From IMG/VR virus record IMGVR_UViG_3300021792_000012, positions 1-32,144 of that record: DNA of 32,144 nt; one strand, 5' to 3'. Source of the stretch: a virus. Position numbers and translations under genes: made by a program. Shown here in pieces: positions 1 through 16,670 of this stretch. Below the pieces are notes generated by a model. It was not told the DNA's origin, searched no databases, and saw only the letters and a program-made list of their open reading frames with translations. Each line of letters starts with the position of its first letter. Within the stretch, counting starts at the first letter, position 1.

Positions 1-54
1 GTAGATAGTCCAGATCACACATATTTAATGGAAGGAAATATTGCCACTCACAAT
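1..54 (+). other. C-terminal end of an intein inside the terminase large subunit gene (partial)
   Basis: The reading frame of the terminase is open to the left edge. Its first 18 codons read VDSPDHTYLMEGNIATHN, a close match to the C-terminal splicing blocks of inteins: a D-x-x-D-H-x-Y/F-L stretch, a small glycine turn, then the penultimate His and terminal Asn that cyclises during splicing. The next residue, Thr (base 55), is an allowed +1 extein nucleophile. Downstream, the sequence TTLTEYLILY is what normally follows the Gly-Lys of a terminase P-loop, so the intein appears to sit between the P-loop Lys and Thr, a common intein site in phage terminases. The N-terminal splicing blocks and any homing endonuclease lie outside the window and cannot be judged. 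The ATG at 28 lies within the intein and is not a start. Confidence 0.85.
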
Positions 55-1464
55 ACAACACTTACTGAATACTTAATTCTATACATTGCTACTTGGGGTA
101 CGTTTAATGAAAAATGGGATGTGAAATATGGTGTATATGTTTCTGACTCCATTGAAAACGGTGTTAAGAAAATGCGTAAAAGGTTGGAACGTAGATGGAA
201 ATCCAGCCCATTTTTACAACAAGCTATTCCTTACACTAGATTTACTGATATACGGTGGGAATTTGCAAATATGGCAGGACTGACTACAGTATTTCAGGGA
301 GCCGGTATAATGACTGGCATTCGTGGTACAGTAGAAGAAGGTACTCGTATTCGCTTGGTTCTTGCTGATGATGTTATGTCTGATGCTGATGCTAAATCAC
401 CAACAGTAAGACAATCTATTAGAGATGTAATTTATTCTGCAATAAACTTTGGTATGCATCCTAGATACCATAAGGTAATGTGGAATGGTACACCATTTAA
501 TACTGAAGATCCGCTATATCAAGCTGCTGGTTCAGGTGGTTGGGTTACTTCAATTTATCCCGTATGTGAAAAATTCCCAGTAAAAGAAAGTGAATTTAGG
601 GGAATCTGGGAAGATCGTTTCGATTATAACTATGTCTATAACCAATATAAACTTGCTAAACAAGTCGGTAACTTGCCCGGGTTTAACAAAGAATTATTAT
701 TAAGAATTGCCTCAGACGAAGAGAAGCTAATTGACGAAGAAGCCATACCTCATCTTAGACATATTGAGGTTATGAAAAACAAACAATTATTTAACTGTTA
801 CATAACTACAGACTTTGCAACCTCATCTAAAGAAACAGCAGATGACAGCGTTATCCTCGTTTGGTTCTATACAGCAAATAAGGACTGGATTGCTGTAGAT
901 GGTATTGCTAAAAAACAAAGAATGACACAAACCTTAGATAAGCTATTTGAGTTTGTAAGGCAGTATGAGCCACTTGGAGTAGGTGTAGAAATCACTGGAC
1001 AACAAGGGGGATTTATTGACTGGTTAAAAGAGCGTATGGTCACTTCTAAGACGTTCTTCACACTTGCCAAAGAGGTTGGCACTAACCACGAAGGAATACG
1101 CCCTGTAAAGGACAAATTAAGCCGTTTAAAGCAATTTGTACCGATTATAAATAGTGGTAAATTCCATTTAACAGACAAATTTGCTAAAAGTCCTGCTGGT
1201 ATCAAATTGCTTTATGAATTAAGCTTAGTTTCTGACGATGGCATAAAGGGTACGGACAACTGCATTGATGCAACAACTATGCTACAATACATGGAAAAGC
1301 AGGCTCCGAACCTTACTGGTAGTTCTATAGATACTGTAGAACAAGAAATGTATGAGGATTCTGGGGAAATAGATGACTCAGATTTTTACTCAGTTCATTT
1401 GGACGATGACGGTATGCCTGTAGATTCCCACGACTTATTTAATACCGATTCTTACCATGTATAA
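1..1464 (+). CDS. Phage terminase large subunit, C-terminal part (5' end outside the window, intein-interrupted)
   Basis: The motor ATPase and nuclease that packages phage DNA into the prohead through the portal. After the intein remnant (bases 1-54), the extein begins at base 55 with the helix that follows the P-loop. A Walker B-like LVLADD lies at about 352-372. Then comes the stretch WNGTPFNTEDPLY and a PVCEKFP motif, both seen in N4-type terminases. The RNase H-like nuclease is marked by Asp in TTDFA (811-813), a following acidic pair in TADDS, Glu in VGVEITGQ, and a C-terminal Asp in CIDATTM (1267-1269), so all three acidic positions are present. The acidic C-terminal tail is ordinary. 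The gene stops 3 bases before the next ATG, which fits one late operon. The Walker A Gly-Lys must lie before the intein, to the left of the window. Confidence 0.9.
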   Translation, partial: VDSPDHTYLMEGNIATHNTTLTEYLILYIATWGTFNEKWDVKYGVYVSDSIENGVKKMRKRLERRWKSSPFLQQAIPYTRFTDIRWEFANMAGLTTVFQGAGIMTGIRGTVEEGTRIRLVLADDVMSDADAKSPTVRQSIRDVIYSAINFGMHPRYHKVMWNGTPFNTEDPLYQAAGSGGWVTSIYPVCEKFPVKESEFRGIWEDRFDYNYVYNQYKLAKQVGNLPGFNKELLLRIASDEEKLIDEEAIPHLRHIEVMKNKQLFNCYITTDFATSSKETADDSVILVWFYTANKDWIAVDGIAKKQRMTQTLDKLFEFVRQYEPLGVGVEITGQQGGFIDWLKERMVTSKTFFTLAKEVGTNHEGIRPVKDKLSRLKQFVPIINSGKFHLTDKFAKSPAGIKLLYELSLVSDDGIKGTDNCIDATTMLQYMEKQAPNLTGSSIDTVEQEMYEDSGEIDDSDFYSVHLDDDGMPVDSHDLFNTDSYHV

Positions 1465-1467
1465 ATT

Positions 1468-2190
1468 ATGATTATTCAAGACTTAATTAATGAATTACAA
1501 TACGGAGCTTACAACGATTATCTTAGTAATGATAATTTTGGTGATCCCACTACTCCTGTATATCTACATGCTCTGAACATATCTTTAAATAGAGCGATTA
1601 AAAGATTACACGGAGATGTGCCACTAATCAGTAAAGCACACTTATTAAAAATTACACCGGGAAGGATGGTTTATTACCTTAAAAAAGAACGAGCTTTAAC
1701 AGATACAAGTAGTACAATAGCTTTAGAAAATCGTTATATAATTGATTCAGAATATAATCCATTTAACGGTACAATGTTAAGAGTTCTGGGTGTATTTGAT
1801 CACAATGGTAAAGAATTACCAATAAACACTATTCATAGTATTCGTGGCGTAACAATGCCGAAATATAATGTAATCGAATTAAAAAAACCGGATAAGTGTT
1901 TTTACTCCTTTACTTATCAAGACTCTCTATTACCTTTTGTTTATGATCCGGCTGACCAAGAAGCTTATTTGAACCAAGAAATTGATATACCCCCTGATGC
2001 TGAACCTGCTCTAATGTTTGCAATACTTATGATGATAGCTAGGTCTGCAACATATCAAGAGGGGGAAAAAGAAGAAACAGACTTTAGACAACTCTACGAA
2101 AAAGAAAAACAAGATTTAATCAATAAAAATGTAACTGCTGGTGTAATACCAGATACTTATGACTTGTTACATAGAAACGGGTATTTGTAA
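1468..2190 (+). CDS. Head-to-tail adaptor-like protein (N4 gp67-position homologue)
   Basis: A 240-residue protein directly after the terminase. The N-terminal part has short helices (VYLHALNISLNRAIKRLHGD, residues about 30-50), the middle is beta-rich, and the C-terminal third has an IPPDAEPALMFAILMMIA helix followed by a charged segment, FRQLYEKEKQDL. A helical bundle with an IPxxxxxAL helix and a trailing F/Y-x-x-x-Y-x-x-E helix is typical of adaptor (connector) proteins that sit below the portal. In N4 the gene beside the terminase also encodes a structural protein of about 30 kDa, which supports the call by position. There is no signal peptide or membrane segment. Its stop overlaps the start of the next gene by one base (TAATG), implying translational coupling. 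The adaptor role is inferred from fold-like features and position. Confidence 0.55.
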   Translation: MIIQDLINELQYGAYNDYLSNDNFGDPTTPVYLHALNISLNRAIKRLHGDVPLISKAHLLKITPGRMVYYLKKERALTDTSSTIALENRYIIDSEYNPFNGTMLRVLGVFDHNGKELPINTIHSIRGVTMPKYNVIELKKPDKCFYSFTYQDSLLPFVYDPADQEAYLNQEIDIPPDAEPALMFAILMMIARSATYQEGEKEETDFRQLYEKEKQDLINKNVTAGVIPDTYDLLHRNGYL

Positions 2191-2975
2191 TGTATAGTCA
2201 ACCGCATACGCAAAATAAGCAATTAGCTGCTGATTATTTGTATGGTCCAGATGCCGTAGAAAGCGCCCAGATCGGGTTAGGTGACGATATAGATTATTTT
2301 CTAAGGCATGCTTTTAAGGATGACATGGTTCCTTTAGGTACTGTGCAAAAAGATATTGTATTCGTAGATCTAAATTGTGGTGCAATCTCTACAGAAGAAG
2401 AAGGTGGTGGTGGCAGTGGGGGTAACGGAAACGGCAATGGCGGTGGTGGTAATGGTAATGGTGGCGGTGGTGGAGAAGAAGAACTACAACCCTTATTTAT
2501 GCGTGTATGGACATTCAACCCAGGTTTGGCGCAATCTTATCAAGCCCTTACTGTTAGCTTATCTTTAATCGAATTAATAGATGCTAATAATCATAATGTA
2601 CTTACAGGAAGACATTGGGGGGTATCTCCTTCATCTAGTACGAATGTTGCTCCATTTTTCTCCGGTCCATCACAAACAGATGGTTTAATTGGTTTAAGTA
2701 TTCACTATTCAGATAGGTATATAGCAAAGGAATCTCATCCAGAGGTTCCTATAAAAATACGATTAACACGACCATCTGAAAGTCATATACCATTCCACAC
2801 TCTTAAATTAGGTTATTATGATGTACCAATGAGTGAGATAGCTAATTGGACACCTTATAACAATACAAGACCTTATAATTTTGTTCAATTCTGGGAATTA
2901 GCTAATGTCTTTTCTGGTGTTAATTCAGTAACCTATACAATAGATAATCCACCAGCAGCTATACCATTAGGATAA
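2190..2975 (+). CDS. Tail-associated protein with Gly/Asn linker and a C-terminal discoidin-like sugar-binding domain
   Basis: 261 residues in two parts joined by a flexible linker. Residues 1-70 form a compact N-terminal part, probably the virion attachment end. Residues 72-96 are almost only Gly and Asn, flanked by Glu triplets. Residues about 100-225 form a beta-rich domain starting RVWTF and ending in LGYYDVP. This domain resembles part of the 1607-residue fibre downstream (RVWRF ... VRYYDVP, about bases 13416-13775), including IPxxxL/I before the YYDVP and similar spacing. In the fibre copy the context looks like an F5/8 type C (discoidin) domain, a fold that often binds sugars. I infer an appendage or tail-tip role in receptor contact. 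It starts on the last base of the previous stop and stops six bases before the next gene. Confidence 0.5.
   Translation: MYSQPHTQNKQLAADYLYGPDAVESAQIGLGDDIDYFLRHAFKDDMVPLGTVQKDIVFVDLNCGAISTEEEGGGGSGGNGNGNGGGGNGNGGGGGEEELQPLFMRVWTFNPGLAQSYQALTVSLSLIELIDANNHNVLTGRHWGVSPSSSTNVAPFFSGPSQTDGLIGLSIHYSDRYIAKESHPEVPIKIRLTRPSESHIPFHTLKLGYYDVPMSEIANWTPYNNTRPYNFVQFWELANVFSGVNSVTYTIDNPPAAIPLG
2403..2477 (+). repeat. Poly-glycine/asparagine linker-coding tract in the 261-residue tail protein
   Basis: About 25 codons of GGN and AAY encoding Gly and Asn, flanked on both sides by GAA/GAG codons. It joins an N-terminal attachment part to a C-terminal binding-like domain. The tract looks like the one at 16281 but uses Asn instead of Ser. 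Confidence 0.8.
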
Positions 2976-11846: not shown

Positions 11847-14800
11847 ATGAACTTCGCATCCTACATCTTAAAATCACGAGGCATGAGTGAAGCAGCAGAG
11901 CTTAATATTGCTAATATTGCTACTGCTATGACAGAACAGAATCTTCTGATTGAAGAGACTAATGAAGGTATTGATGAATTAAAGCAACAGACTATTGATA
12001 ATACCCTTAGTATAAATACTCATGCTGACGACAACACAACAAGCATTAATACTCATTTAGACGATAACTCTGCCTTAATTATTGCTGCTGTTCAGGCTCT
12101 ACAAAATAGTGTTGTTGCTGAGGGTGATGAGACCCAAGATTTATTAAATCAGCTAAAACTAATTGCTACTACAGATGCTACAAAGCAAGATACAATAATT
12201 GCTAAACTTCAAGCAATCATTGATAAACCAGACAACGCTGCTGTACTAGCAGATCTCTTGGTTCAACTAACCCATATTGTCGATAATACTGCTGAAATTA
12301 ATCAGACTATCATTGATAAGACTGATGAAGAACTGGCTGAGTTAATTGCGATAAAAATAAATACTGGAGCCGTTAAAGATTTTGTAGATACTTCTTACGA
12401 TAATATGGTGGCTCAAAACTGCTTTGTCGTAGGTGATGCTACTATTCCTTCTGGAAACCATACCGTAACTATTACTGCTTTAACTGCTGATGTTTACTAC
12501 GGTGATGGTGCAGGTATTTTAATATCACAAGGAACCAAGAAAGTTATCGAAGCTGCCTTTGTAAAAACTTTACCAACACTTACTATAAAAAGCATAGGTG
12601 CTTGGAGTATTGAGATATTACATTTTGGTTTAGGTGGCTTACCTTCTAATTGTACTGCCGTTTTGAATCCTTACACAGATTTTGCTTCTGTAGTAGTTAA
12701 TACAGGACAAGCACACATCCAAGCTAATTGTGATCTTAAAATTGACTGGGGTGACGGTAATGGTGAAGTAGAGTATTTGTCTACAGGTAATACAGATCCA
12801 GATCTGGATATAACTAAACAAATTGATAATGATGGAACAACAATATCTATCAGATCAAAAGACCTTACTTGGTTCAGATTTGTTTCAGATAACTTTATTG
12901 AAATTCATTGTCACAATACAGAGTCCTTACTTGATTTAACGAACTTCTGTAATGGATTAACTAATCTTACCACTTTCACTGTAGATGCTCCTGGATTTCC
13001 TAATGTAACTAATTTTCTTAGGGCATTTAAAAATTGTTCATTACTAACACAAGTTAAGAATATTAATTATCAAAATGCTTTAAGTACAAAAGCCATGTTT
13101 GAAGGTTGTACCAATCTGCATGATATGGAAGTTATTAATTCCAGTAGTTGTGAAGACTTCTCTAAAATGTTTAAAGATTGTACTTCTCTTGTTTGTTTAG
13201 CAGGAATAGATACAACCGCACAAACAACTACAGCCAATATGTTCCAAAATACTGTTGCATTAATTCATCCTGACGCAGCAGAAATTGTAACCATTCAAGC
13301 CGGTAGTAACTGGTTAAACAATAGTAATTGTGATGAAACTACAGTAGGAAATCAGGCTCCTGTAATATCTTTACTAGGGGACAATCCAGATGATCAAGAT
13401 ATTCAATATCCTGCTGTTAGAGTATGGAGATTTAGAGTAGGTATCGGAACCACTCCGGGTAAATATAAAAGGGGTTTGGCTGAAATTAAACTGCTTACAG
13501 CCTCTGGACAGAACATTATAACAAGTAGCCAGGGCGCTCATTCTGCTTGGGATTACAATACAAGTCATCCTTCTTATGTAGCACCTACTCCAGAACTGGC
13601 TATTGATGGTGATGTTAATACAACTGGTTTTGTGCATATAGACTATCATCGAGATATTTATGGTCTTTATTATTTCTCTAGTGGAGAGGCAGTAGATTCT
13701 ATTGAAATTATTGCACCAAATGATGGTACTATTCCTTGGGAACATATAGAAGTTCGGTACTATGATGTACCTGCATACATTGGGCATAATTTAGTAGCTA
13801 ATGATTTTCGATATGAAAGCATAGTAACTCCTACTATAGTAGTGCCTATGCAAAATCTAAACTTGGTACAAGGAGAAACTAAAACCTTTAATGTTGCTGT
13901 ACCTGCTGTTTCAGTAGCTAATTATACTGAGCCAGGATATACAGCAGTAGATCCAGAGGATGGAGATATAACAGCAGATGTAACAACATCTGGTTCCGTT
14001 GATTTAACCACTACTGGTAATTACCCAATAACTTATAATGTTCAAGACAGTGCAGGTTTAGCAGCATCCAAAATACGAGCAGTTAATGTTAATGTTGTTA
14101 ATAAAGAGCCTGTAATATTTTTAAGAGGAGACAATCCAGAAGAGTTACCAGATATTTATTTTACTGTTTCACAAAATCCTACAGAGCATTTTCCTAATCT
14201 TGATTATTGGTTATTGTATGGAAATTCAGGTCCTACACCCGGATATGATAATCTAAAATTTGATAATCCAAGTTCAAGTGCCATTAAAAGCAGAAGGTAT
14301 GTTCTGGATTCTGATATTGATCTTACGATTAGAATAGCGCATTTAGCAACAGCTACTGAAACGGGTTATTTGAATGTCTTAGTAAGACCGGATGCTGGTA
14401 TAGCCAATTTTGGCTTCGGCGTTAAAATGGAAAACGGTACTTTAAAAGCAACACTACAAAGTGGTACTGTGGGTAATGAGTATGATGTAACTAACAGTCC
14501 GGTTTTCCCTATCTATGTAAGAATGCGAGTAACAAATCATGTTCTTAAACTTGATATTAAACAATACACACAAAGCTATAATCCCGTCTTAGACGATAAT
14601 GGAGATGTTGCTACAGCTAACGTCAGTCCATTTAGCAATAGCCCTAGATTAACTCTTGCTGCTTCTTATGATGCAAATAACACAGCACCAGTAACTGTTC
14701 AAAACTTATTTACTAGCAAAATACTTTGCACAGAAAGCGAATACAGTGATCCGGGTTATTGGGCATTTGATTATGAAGATGGTGACATTACAAATCTTGT

Positions 14801-16670
14801 AACTACATCTGGAACAGTAGACGTTACTACTGCTGGTTCATACACTATTGCATATTCTGTTACGGATAGTGGTGGAGCTACCGGAACAGCATCCAGAGTG
14901 GTTAATATAAACCATACAGACATAAGCCCTACAATAACTTTACAGGGTTCTTCTTACATGACCATCCCAGTAAATTCAACGTATATTGAACCGGGATATG
15001 TGGCACATGATTACGAGGATGGAGATTTAACAAACCAAGTTACTGTTAATGGTACAGTGGATACAACTACTCCTGGCAACTATTCATTAACTTATAGTGT
15101 TACTGATAGTAGCGGATTATCTACTACTGTTTATCGAGATGTTACTGTAGAAGTTGCAGCTAACCAAGCACCTACTATTACTTTACTTGGTGATAATCCT
15201 TACAATATAGTTGAGGGAACCGTATGGAATGACCCTGGAGCAACAGCTTCAGATCCTGAAGACGGTAATATAACAAATCAAATACAAGTTACTGGTAATG
15301 TAGATGTAACAACTGTTGGAACTTATACGCTAACTTATACTGTAACAGATAGTGGTGGCTTGTCTGATACTAAAACTAGAACTGTTACTGTTGTAGCTAA
15401 CCAAGCGCCTACACTTACATTACAAGGGGATAATCCTTTAATTATCCCAATAAGCACTACGGATACAGATCCAGCAAATTGGGTTGGACCTAGTAATAAC
15501 AAGCATTATGATATTGATGCCCAAGATTTTGAAATGGATGTGCTTAATGCACAGATTGATTTCACTTTATATGATTACTATAACCCTAATACTTACAATT
15601 ATTATCAGTATGCAAATATTAGATTACAAGGTAATAAGGTACGTTTAATAGACGATGGTATATTTGTAGCAACAGTGAATTTAGGTCAAACTGTAACGCA
15701 AATTGACAGACGATTTAAGCGTGCTGGTAATTCAGTAACTGCTTATTACAGATTGACAGCTAATGATCCTTGGACTCAGATAGGCTCACCTATAATATTT
15801 AGTCAGGCTACTCTTAAAGTTGATGTAGGTGGAACAGTACCGCTATTTGAATGCACTACTTATCCAGACTATACTGAACCAGGGTACACAGCCATTGATC
15901 CAGAAGACGGAGACATCACTGCTAATGTTGTAGTTACTGGTGATACAGTGGATACGCATACTGCTGGTTCGTACATTGTTACTTATACAGTTACAGATAG
16001 TAGTGGAGCATCAGCAACAGTCGATAGAACTGTGCTTGTTATCAGTAATCCAGTTATTACATTACTTGGTGATAATCCATATAGCCTCACACAGAACTCC
16101 ACTTGGACTGATCCGGGTGCTACGGCTGTTGATTTTGCTGGTACTGATATATCCAATGATATAGTGACAAATGGTACAGTGGATTCGGCTACTGTAGGCA
16201 CTTATAACATAACTTATAATGTAACAGATTCTCATGGATTCCATGCAGATACCGTTACTCGTGTTGTTGATGTTACCGCTAGTGGATCTGGTGGCGGCGG
16301 CGGCAGTGGTGGTGGCGGTGGTGGCGGTAGCTCCAATAATCCACCTGTTGTTACATTAAACGGCAATACAAATGTTACAGTACTTGTTGGTTCTACTTGG
16401 AATGATCCAGGGGCAACTGCAATAGACCCAGAAGAGGGTACACTTAATGTAGTTGTAGGTGGTGATACAGTCGATACAGCAACTGAAGGTACTTATGTTG
16501 TTACTTACACAGCCACAGACTCACAAGGATTAAGTGACACTAAGAATCGAACCATTACTGTCTCTGATGGTAGTTGTGTTGGTCAGGACTTTATTTATGA
16601 TCCAACTGAGTATAACGACACAGACCAAACAGATGATTACAAACCAGAGGATTACGATATATGTCCATAG
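11847..16670 (+). CDS. Giant fibre/adhesin with Ig-like repeats and nested binding domains
   Basis: A 1607-residue surface adhesin. Residues 1-180 are helical, with low-complexity NTxxSINTHxDDN repeats. About 185-265 form a small beta domain, an anchor module shared with the 228-residue protein downstream. Next are a PKD-like IDWGDGNGE and a BspA/DUF285-like section (about 345-470) with repeated M/LF..C..L units. From 500 on there are about seven DUF5011/HYR-type Ig-like domains, each recognisable by GDNP, then EPGYTAxDPEDGDIT, GTVDTxxxGxYxxTYxVTDSxG. Three of them carry another domain inserted after GDNP: a discoidin-like domain (about 13390-13790) and two lectin-like beta domains (about 14150-14720 and 15440-15850). 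A Gly/Ser linker (16281-16334) precedes the last repeat, and the tail is acidic. It is probably a tail or capsid fibre for host attachment. It overlaps the next gene by 10 bases. Confidence 0.8.
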   Translation: MNFASYILKSRGMSEAAELNIANIATAMTEQNLLIEETNEGIDELKQQTIDNTLSINTHADDNTTSINTHLDDNSALIIAAVQALQNSVVAEGDETQDLLNQLKLIATTDATKQDTIIAKLQAIIDKPDNAAVLADLLVQLTHIVDNTAEINQTIIDKTDEELAELIAIKINTGAVKDFVDTSYDNMVAQNCFVVGDATIPSGNHTVTITALTADVYYGDGAGILISQGTKKVIEAAFVKTLPTLTIKSIGAWSIEILHFGLGGLPSNCTAVLNPYTDFASVVVNTGQAHIQANCDLKIDWGDGNGEVEYLSTGNTDPDLDITKQIDNDGTTISIRSKDLTWFRFVSDNFIEIHCHNTESLLDLTNFCNGLTNLTTFTVDAPGFPNVTNFLRAFKNCSLLTQVKNINYQNALSTKAMFEGCTNLHDMEVINSSSCEDFSKMFKDCTSLVCLAGIDTTAQTTTANMFQNTVALIHPDAAEIVTIQAGSNWLNNSNCDETTVGNQAPVISLLGDNPDDQDIQYPAVRVWRFRVGIGTTPGKYKRGLAEIKLLTASGQNIITSSQGAHSAWDYNTSHPSYVAPTPELAIDGDVNTTGFVHIDYHRDIYGLYYFSSGEAVDSIEIIAPNDGTIPWEHIEVRYYDVPAYIGHNLVANDFRYESIVTPTIVVPMQNLNLVQGETKTFNVAVPAVSVANYTEPGYTAVDPEDGDITADVTTSGSVDLTTTGNYPITYNVQDSAGLAASKIRAVNVNVVNKEPVIFLRGDNPEELPDIYFTVSQNPTEHFPNLDYWLLYGNSGPTPGYDNLKFDNPSSSAIKSRRYVLDSDIDLTIRIAHLATATETGYLNVLVRPDAGIANFGFGVKMENGTLKATLQSGTVGNEYDVTNSPVFPIYVRMRVTNHVLKLDIKQYTQSYNPVLDDNGDVATANVSPFSNSPRLTLAASYDANNTAPVTVQNLFTSKILCTESEYSDPGYWAFDYEDGDITNLVTTSGTVDVTTAGSYTIAYSVTDSGGATGTASRVVNINHTDISPTITLQGSSYMTIPVNSTYIEPGYVAHDYEDGDLTNQVTVNGTVDTTTPGNYSLTYSVTDSSGLSTTVYRDVTVEVAANQAPTITLLGDNPYNIVEGTVWNDPGATASDPEDGNITNQIQVTGNVDVTTVGTYTLTYTVTDSGGLSDTKTRTVTVVANQAPTLTLQGDNPLIIPISTTDTDPANWVGPSNNKHYDIDAQDFEMDVLNAQIDFTLYDYYNPNTYNYYQYANIRLQGNKVRLIDDGIFVATVNLGQTVTQIDRRFKRAGNSVTAYYRLTANDPWTQIGSPIIFSQATLKVDVGGTVPLFECTTYPDYTEPGYTAIDPEDGDITANVVVTGDTVDTHTAGSYIVTYTVTDSSGASATVDRTVLVISNPVITLLGDNPYSLTQNSTWTDPGATAVDFAGTDISNDIVTNGTVDSATVGTYNITYNVTDSHGFHADTVTRVVDVTASGSGGGGGSGGGGGGGSSNNPPVVTLNGNTNVTVLVGSTWNDPGATAIDPEEGTLNVVVGGDTVDTATEGTYVVTYTATDSQGLSDTKNRTITVSDGSCVGQDFIYDPTEYNDTDQTDDYKPEDYDICP
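16281..16334 (+). repeat. Poly-glycine/serine linker-coding tract in the giant fibre
   Basis: About 18 codons of almost pure GGN with a few serines, visibly GC-rich against its surroundings. It separates the last Ig-like domain from the rest of the fibre. Simple GGT/GGC repeats of this kind change length easily by slippage. Confidence 0.8.

What the first reader, a model, noticed from the sequence alone, without database searches (positions are those of the whole stretch)
1..60. Intein inserted in the P-loop of the phage terminase large subunit
The first 18 codons end in THN and fit intein C-terminal splicing blocks (PDHTYL, glycine turn, penultimate His, terminal Asn), followed by Thr. The extein then continues with TLTEYLILY, the helix that follows a Walker A Lys. 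So the terminase is split at its ATP-binding loop, a position where splicing would be strictly required for packaging. A +1 Thr is less usual than Ser or Cys. That packaging depends on protein splicing is inference from the position.
Basis: partly seen in the sequence, partly recalled or inferred. Interest (0 to 1): 0.75.

Follow-up and report, generated by a model that had tools for sequence, protein, structure and literature searches.

The report
Phage packaging-motor gene interrupted by intein
The left edge of this phage DNA fragment cuts through a self-splicing protein insert (an intein) sitting in the ATP-binding loop of the DNA-packaging motor; such inserts at this spot are already known in related phages, so this is a new example rather than a new kind of thing.

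Summary
Bases 1-54 encode the last 18 residues of an intein, VDSPDHTYLMEGNIATHN. The terminase large subunit (TerL) of an N4-like phage (Schitoviridae) follows in frame from +1 Thr.

The 18 residues score 35.4 bits on a profile of related intein ends; the best of 300,000 random 18-mers scores 8.5. Eight fetched relatives carry an intein at this junction, and 83 intein-free relatives read RGx[AS]K|[ST] there, so the insertion splits Walker A between Lys and Thr. The contig stops inside the intein, so its N-terminal blocks, endonuclease and N-extein were not seen.

TerL inteins in N4-like phages are published (JA-1; PMC3670811), as are Lys|Thr P-loop TerL inteins (TerL1-a; PMC5050341).

Two corrections. 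A +1 Thr is normal here: relatives are class 3-like, with Ala1, Cys at F:4, THN and +1 Thr or Ser. An N-terminal Cys/Ser should therefore not be expected.

By-product: the Schitoviridae TerL inteins form one clade with Asn, not the class-defining Trp, at B:12. Whether the window's intein shares this is unknown.

The parts
1..54 (+). C-terminal 18 residues of an intein (VDSPDHTYLMEGNIATHN), truncated by the contig end; block F remnant DHTYL at 13-27, block G THN at 46-54
   Evidence: 35.4-bit profile score against a random maximum of 8.5; aligned to intein ends in JA-1, L002, L012 and L059
49..54 (+). Penultimate His and terminal Asn of the intein (Asn would cyclise to release the intein)
   Evidence: sequence; HN in 91 of 93 aligned related inteins
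55..57 (+). +1 Thr of the C-extein; it aligns with the Thr/Ser that follows the Walker A Lys in intein-free TerL
   Evidence: 83 of 83 intein-free relatives read RGx[AS]K|[ST] at this junction
55..1464 (+). C-extein: terminase large subunit (ATPase domain from just after the Walker A Lys, plus nuclease domain) with stop codon
   Evidence: phrog_38 E 4.3e-59; 44-49% identity to Schitoviridae TerL in the listed rows; alignment A1

Best explanation
The window's left end cuts a terminase large subunit gene of an uncultured N4-like phage that carries an in-frame intein between the Walker A lysine and the following threonine. The precursor is made as one chain. The intein excises itself and joins ...HRGxAK to TTLTEYL..., which restores the ATP-binding loop and gives active TerL. 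By kinship the intein most likely splices by the class 3 route: an internal Cys (F:4) attacks the N-terminal junction, the N-extein passes to +1 Thr, then Asn18 cyclises. It most likely also carries a LAGLIDADG homing endonuclease that spreads it between TerL alleles. Shown here: the intein C-terminus, the in-frame junction with TerL and the insertion position. Inferred from relatives: the missing N-part, class 3 chemistry, the endonuclease and that splicing occurs.
For: In-frame 18-residue intein end with a 35.4-bit score against a random maximum of 8.5. The following residues are TerL. In 83 intein-free relatives the same junction reads RGx[AS]K|[ST], and 8 fetched relatives have THN|T there. 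Complete inteins at this exact site in JA-1, D456, 1.245.O, L002, L012, L059, L114 and L119 (319-347 aa) start with Ala and have Cys at F:4, THN and +1 Thr or Ser; their joined exteins rebuild HRGxAK|TT. JA-1 TerL is annotated 'intein-containing' and described in PMC3670811. The L012 intein models at pLDDT 94.7 as a HINT domain closest to class 3 DnaB inteins (Z 20.0, 1.5 A over 123 residues, 37% identity, 6bs8) plus an endonuclease as in PI-SceI (Z 28.1, 1ef0). Class 3 chemistry: PMC5222942 and PMC4031507.
Against: The window holds only 18 intein residues. The first residue, blocks A and B, Cys F:4, the endonuclease and the whole N-extein are outside the contig. No overlapping contig was found in the viral collection. 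The curated intein models do not call the fragment. Among intein subgroups the 18 residues fit the Trp-bearing class 3 profile slightly better than the Schitoviridae one (32.8 against 27.5 bits), so the exact lineage is open. No splicing data exist for any of these inteins here.
Confidence: 0.92

Rival explanations
1. A split (trans-splicing) or decayed intein: the C-terminal half is fused to the TerL C-extein, but the N-half lies in a separate gene elsewhere in the genome or is lost.
For: Only the C-terminal part is seen, and the ORF has an internal ATG at base 28, inside the fragment. Split inteins are known in phages (established knowledge of gp41-1-type inteins).
Against: The frame is open to base 1 with 9 intein codons before that ATG, and the sequence before it (TCCAGATCACACATATTTA) has no purine-rich ribosome site. 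All complete relatives at this site are contiguous inteins with endonuclease. No intein N-half or N-extein lies elsewhere in the window.
Confidence: 0.04
2. Assembly chimera: the intein end of one phage was joined to the TerL of another at the contig edge.
For: The feature is at the very end of a metagenome contig, where assembly errors concentrate; the window is a linear virus record.
Against: The join is in frame and at the exact position where relatives have it, with the expected +1 Thr. A random join would not land on the Lys|Thr junction.
Confidence: 0.03
3. Chance resemblance: the 18 codons are ordinary terminase or upstream sequence and the TerL starts at the ATG at base 28.
For: Upstream sequence is missing; the NCBIfam intein model gives no hit for the fragment.
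Against: 0 of 300,000 random 18-mers come near its score. A start at base 28 would give a TerL without Walker A, whereas all 83 intein-free relatives have RGx[AS]K before the junction.
Confidence: 0.01

Closest known systems
TerL intein of Vibrio phages JA-1 / VCO139 / JSF3 (Pacinivirus, Schitoviridae), described in PMC3670811
   Same: Same gene, same phage family, same insertion point between RGxAK and TT, same ending THN|TTL
   Different: C-extein about 48% identical; only 9 of the 18 intein residues identical. JA-1 has Asn at B:12; the window's state there is unknown
TerL inteins of L012/L013 (IMGVR 3300025759_000335 and 3300006802_007021)
   Same: Same site; closest intein end (10 of 18 identical, VDNATHTYLAGDYIVTHN)
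   Different: TerL only 46% identical; a separate lineage
TerL1-a P-loop inteins of mycobacteriophages (PMC5050341)
   Different: Different terminase family (terminase_1) and phage group
Class 3 DnaB inteins (M. smegmatis DnaBi1 6bs8, MchDnaB1 6rix)
   Same: Best sequence and HINT-fold matches of the window's relatives; THN ending; Ala1 and Cys F:4 in the relatives
   Different: Mini-inteins in DnaB with Trp at B:12; the Schitoviridae TerL inteins carry an endonuclease and Asn at B:12

Membership tests
Intein (protein-splicing element) | C-terminal block G: penultimate His, terminal Asn, then Cys/Ser/Thr +1 | tested here: met
   THN|T at bases 46-57; profile score 35.4 bits
Intein (protein-splicing element) | Block F about 18 residues before the end (hydrophobic, DxxH-aromatic-L) | tested here: met
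   VDSPDHTYL aligns with VDNATHTYL (L012) and VDSPGHLFL (Gaia); first 15 residues alone 22.0 bits, 0 of 300,000 random equal
Intein (protein-splicing element) | In-frame interruption of a host protein that is intact in homologues once joined | tested here: inconclusive
   C-side exact against 83 intein-free TerL; N-side is outside the contig
Intein (protein-splicing element) | N-terminal blocks A and B (residue 1, TxxH) | not testable with these tools
   The contig starts inside the intein; no overlapping contig found
Class 3 intein | Thr at G:5 (THN) | tested here: met
   bases 46-48 ACT = Thr
Class 3 intein | +1 Ser or Thr | tested here: met
   +1 Thr at 55-57; definition in PMC5222942
Class 3 intein | Cys at F:4, the initiating nucleophile | not testable with these tools
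   Lies 3 codons left of base 1; Cys in 93 of 93 related inteins aligned
Class 3 intein | Trp at B:12 | not testable with these tools
   Outside the window. In Schitoviridae TerL relatives tested here it is not met: Asn in all 15 distinct members of one clade
Class 3 intein | No Cys/Ser at residue 1 | not testable with these tools
   Outside the window; Ala1 in 67 of 93 aligned related inteins, including all P-loop-site relatives in Schitoviridae
Phage TerL P-loop (Lys|Thr) intein allele | Insertion directly before the Walker A Thr/Ser of TerL | tested here: met
   Column-for-column alignment with JA-1 and L002 and with 83 intein-free TerL; the Lys itself is off the contig
LAGLIDADG homing-endonuclease intein | Endonuclease domain between splicing halves | not testable with these tools
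   Outside the window; present in relatives

The most novel reading that the evidence does not exclude
The TerL inteins of N4-like phages, possibly including this one, are a class 3 lineage that splices without the class-defining Trp at B:12 (Asn instead) while keeping Cys F:4 and THN|T. They have also colonised two AK|T sites in the same gene: the Walker A loop and GxGAK|TGVRG.
Probability: 0.4. Interest if true: 0.45.

Novelty: new member of a known kind. Interest (0 to 1): 0.3.

Why it matters
It adds a divergent N4-like phage lineage to those whose packaging ATPase is held inactive until an intein removes itself. The related set suggests a testable question: whether class 3 splicing can do without Trp B:12. 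Mutation to Ala blocks splicing in the three class 3 inteins studied in PMC5222942, yet cultured, propagating phages (JA-1, D456, 1.245.O) carry Asn at that position in an essential gene.

Tried and rejected
Recovering the missing left part: exact searches of the viral collection with a 50-mer and with the first 20 bases found nothing; the window's own record has no further contig; the N-extein or intein N-part is not elsewhere in the window (only chance-level matches). Curated intein models on the fragment gave no hit, as expected for 18 residues. Assigning the fragment to the Asn or Trp intein subgroup by profile was inconclusive (27.5 against 32.8 bits). A first structure model from 4 sequences was poor (pLDDT 44) and was not used; the 61-sequence model replaced it. 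An IQ-TREE run on the inteins failed and was replaced by FastTree. Tori and Perler 2011 (PMC3133030), which redefines class 3 inteins, is not in the held library, so prior description of Trp-less class 3 inteins could not be ruled out. Rejected: a start at the ATG at base 28, because it would leave TerL without Walker A.

Full report
Observation. The first frame of the window is open from base 1 to the stop at 1462-1464 and reads VDSPDHTYLMEGNIATHN followed by TTLTEYLILY. From residue 20 on it is a terminase large subunit: phrog_38, E 4.3e-59, and 527 phage records match, all below 60% identity; the listed top rows are N4-like phages (Schitoviridae) at 44-49%. The portal and major capsid proteins in the window also match the corresponding phage families. 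The record is a linear virus fragment of 32,144 bases with no further contig.

Is the intein call more than chance? Yes. A profile of 37 related intein C-termini gives the first 18 residues 35.4 bits. The next best of 23,045 18-mers in all six frames of the window scores 2.7, and the best of 300,000 random 18-mers scores 8.5. Leaving out THN, the other 15 residues still score 22.0 with none of 300,000 random equal. Known members scored with themselves left out have minima of 26.7 and 28.5 bits, so the window lies within the family range.

Where is it inserted? Among 91 fetched TerL loci other than the window's own, 83 have no intein at this junction and every one reads RGx[AS]K|[ST]; 8 end in THN|T instead (the 8 include near-copies). 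In those with complete sequence the intein lies exactly between Lys and Thr and the joined exteins restore the Walker A loop, for example CHRGIAK|TTLKEYL in JA-1. The window aligns with JA-1 and L002 column for column across the junction. The window's ORF has no other Walker A motif, and neither the N-extein nor the rest of the intein is elsewhere in the window.

What the missing part should look like. Complete inteins at this site (JA-1, 12VC501, D456, 1.245.O, 1.238.A, L002, L012/L013, L059, L114, L119) are 319-347 residues and start with Ala. They have His at B:10, Cys at F:4 within QC[IV]xV (QCIAI in 1.238.A), and THN before +1 Thr or Ser. They hold a LAGLIDADG-type endonuclease. Class 3 inteins are defined by Trp B:12, Cys F:4 and Thr G:5, with +1 Ser or Thr (PMC5222942); Cys F:4 makes the first attack (PMC4031507). 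The profile of the Schitoviridae inteins finds class 3 DnaB inteins as its best solved relatives (6rix, 6riy, 6bs8). An AlphaFold model of the L012 intein (pLDDT 94.7) has a splicing domain that fits the class 3 DnaB intein 6bs8 at Z 20.0, 1.5 A over 123 residues and 37% identity, with the whole chain fitting PI-SceI at Z 28.1. The expected N-terminal residue is Ala, not Cys or Ser, and the deciding Cys lies just three codons beyond the window's left end.

Mechanism. Shown: the intein end, its in-frame fusion to TerL and the insertion point. Inferred: the precursor is inactive because the Walker A loop is split; Cys F:4 attacks the junction after Lys; the N-extein moves to +1 Thr; Asn18 cyclises; RGxAK-TTLTEY is restored. 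That packaging needs splicing is inference, supported by isolated lytic phages (JA-1, VCO139, JSF3, 12VC501, D456, 1.245.O) that propagate with TerL split this way; a tblastn with the window TerL finds one TerL place per record in the listed JA-1 group.

Known or new? TerL inteins in N4-like phages were reported for JA-1 and VCO139 in 2013 (PMC3670811), and Lys|Thr P-loop TerL inteins are described as classic in mycobacteriophages (TerL1-a, PMC5050341). The window is a further, divergent member: its TerL sits on a long branch (3.86 changes per column) with no close relative. P-loop inteins are scattered over the TerL tree (7 changes for 9 rows, at least 4 forced by well-supported branches), which fits horizontal spread; part of that sample was chosen by intein searches, so frequencies should not be read from it.

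By-product. All 15 distinct inteins of the Schitoviridae-type set have Asn at B:12 where the other 71 have Trp; the Asn group is one clade (FastTree support 0.951) nested among Trp-bearing class 3 inteins. All but L163 sit in a TerL recognisably of this family (39-48% to the window), and L163 is a distant TerL match at 27%. Trp B:12 to Ala blocks splicing in three studied class 3 inteins (PMC5222942). Five members (L115-L118, L121) sit at a second site in the same gene, GAK|TG(V/L/I)RG, with the Walker A loop intact. Whether this Trp-less group has been described could not be checked, because the key 2011 paper is not held. Whether the window's intein belongs to it is open: the 18 residues score 27.5 on the Asn profile and 32.8 on the Trp profile, while every complete intein seen at this site in this family is of the Asn type.

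Verdict. The finding is correct and well beyond chance, but ordinary in kind: a truncated view of a P-loop TerL intein of a type already described.

Noticed in passing
L115:2208-3224, L116:3001-4020, L117:3001-4017, L118:3001-4032, L121:3001-4020: Inteins of the same lineage at a second site in Schitoviridae TerL, GAK|TG(V/L/I)RG, with the Walker A loop intact; both sites share the local motif AK|T.
   Followed up: partly
L002, L012, L059, L114-L121, L163 and phages JA-1, D456, 1.245.O, 1.238.A: Asn at B:12 in place of the class 3 Trp, in one clade.
   Followed up: partly
L163:2998-4017 (IMGVR_UViG_3300019863_000024): A related intein between SGGRG and TRDED in a distant TerL-like protein of 1325 residues whose N-extein of 581 residues may hold a further insertion.
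   Followed up: no
L107:6169-6486 and L108:6169-6486: Vibrio phages 1.245.O and 1.238.A have a solitary hedgehog/hint domain ORF between the intein-bearing TerL and the next structural gene.
   Followed up: no
L106:61-2625: The intein-bearing TerL of Vibrio phage D456 is annotated 'DarB-like antirestriction'; Gordonia phage Gmala1's TerL carries the same label in one record. Likely annotation carry-over.
   Followed up: no
window 1-54: The contig breaks 54 bases before the intein/extein junction; a mix of intein-bearing and intein-free strains in the sample could cause such a break (not tested).
   Followed up: no
window 11847-16670: 1607-residue ORF with repeated 'YTEPGYTAIDPEDGDIT' type modules (bacterial Ig-like appearance), probable virion appendage; no PHROG match.
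   Followed up: no
window 2190-2975: 261-residue ORF in the structural cluster with a long Gly/Asn-rich linker (GGGGSGGNGNGNGGGG...) and no PHROG match.
   Followed up: no
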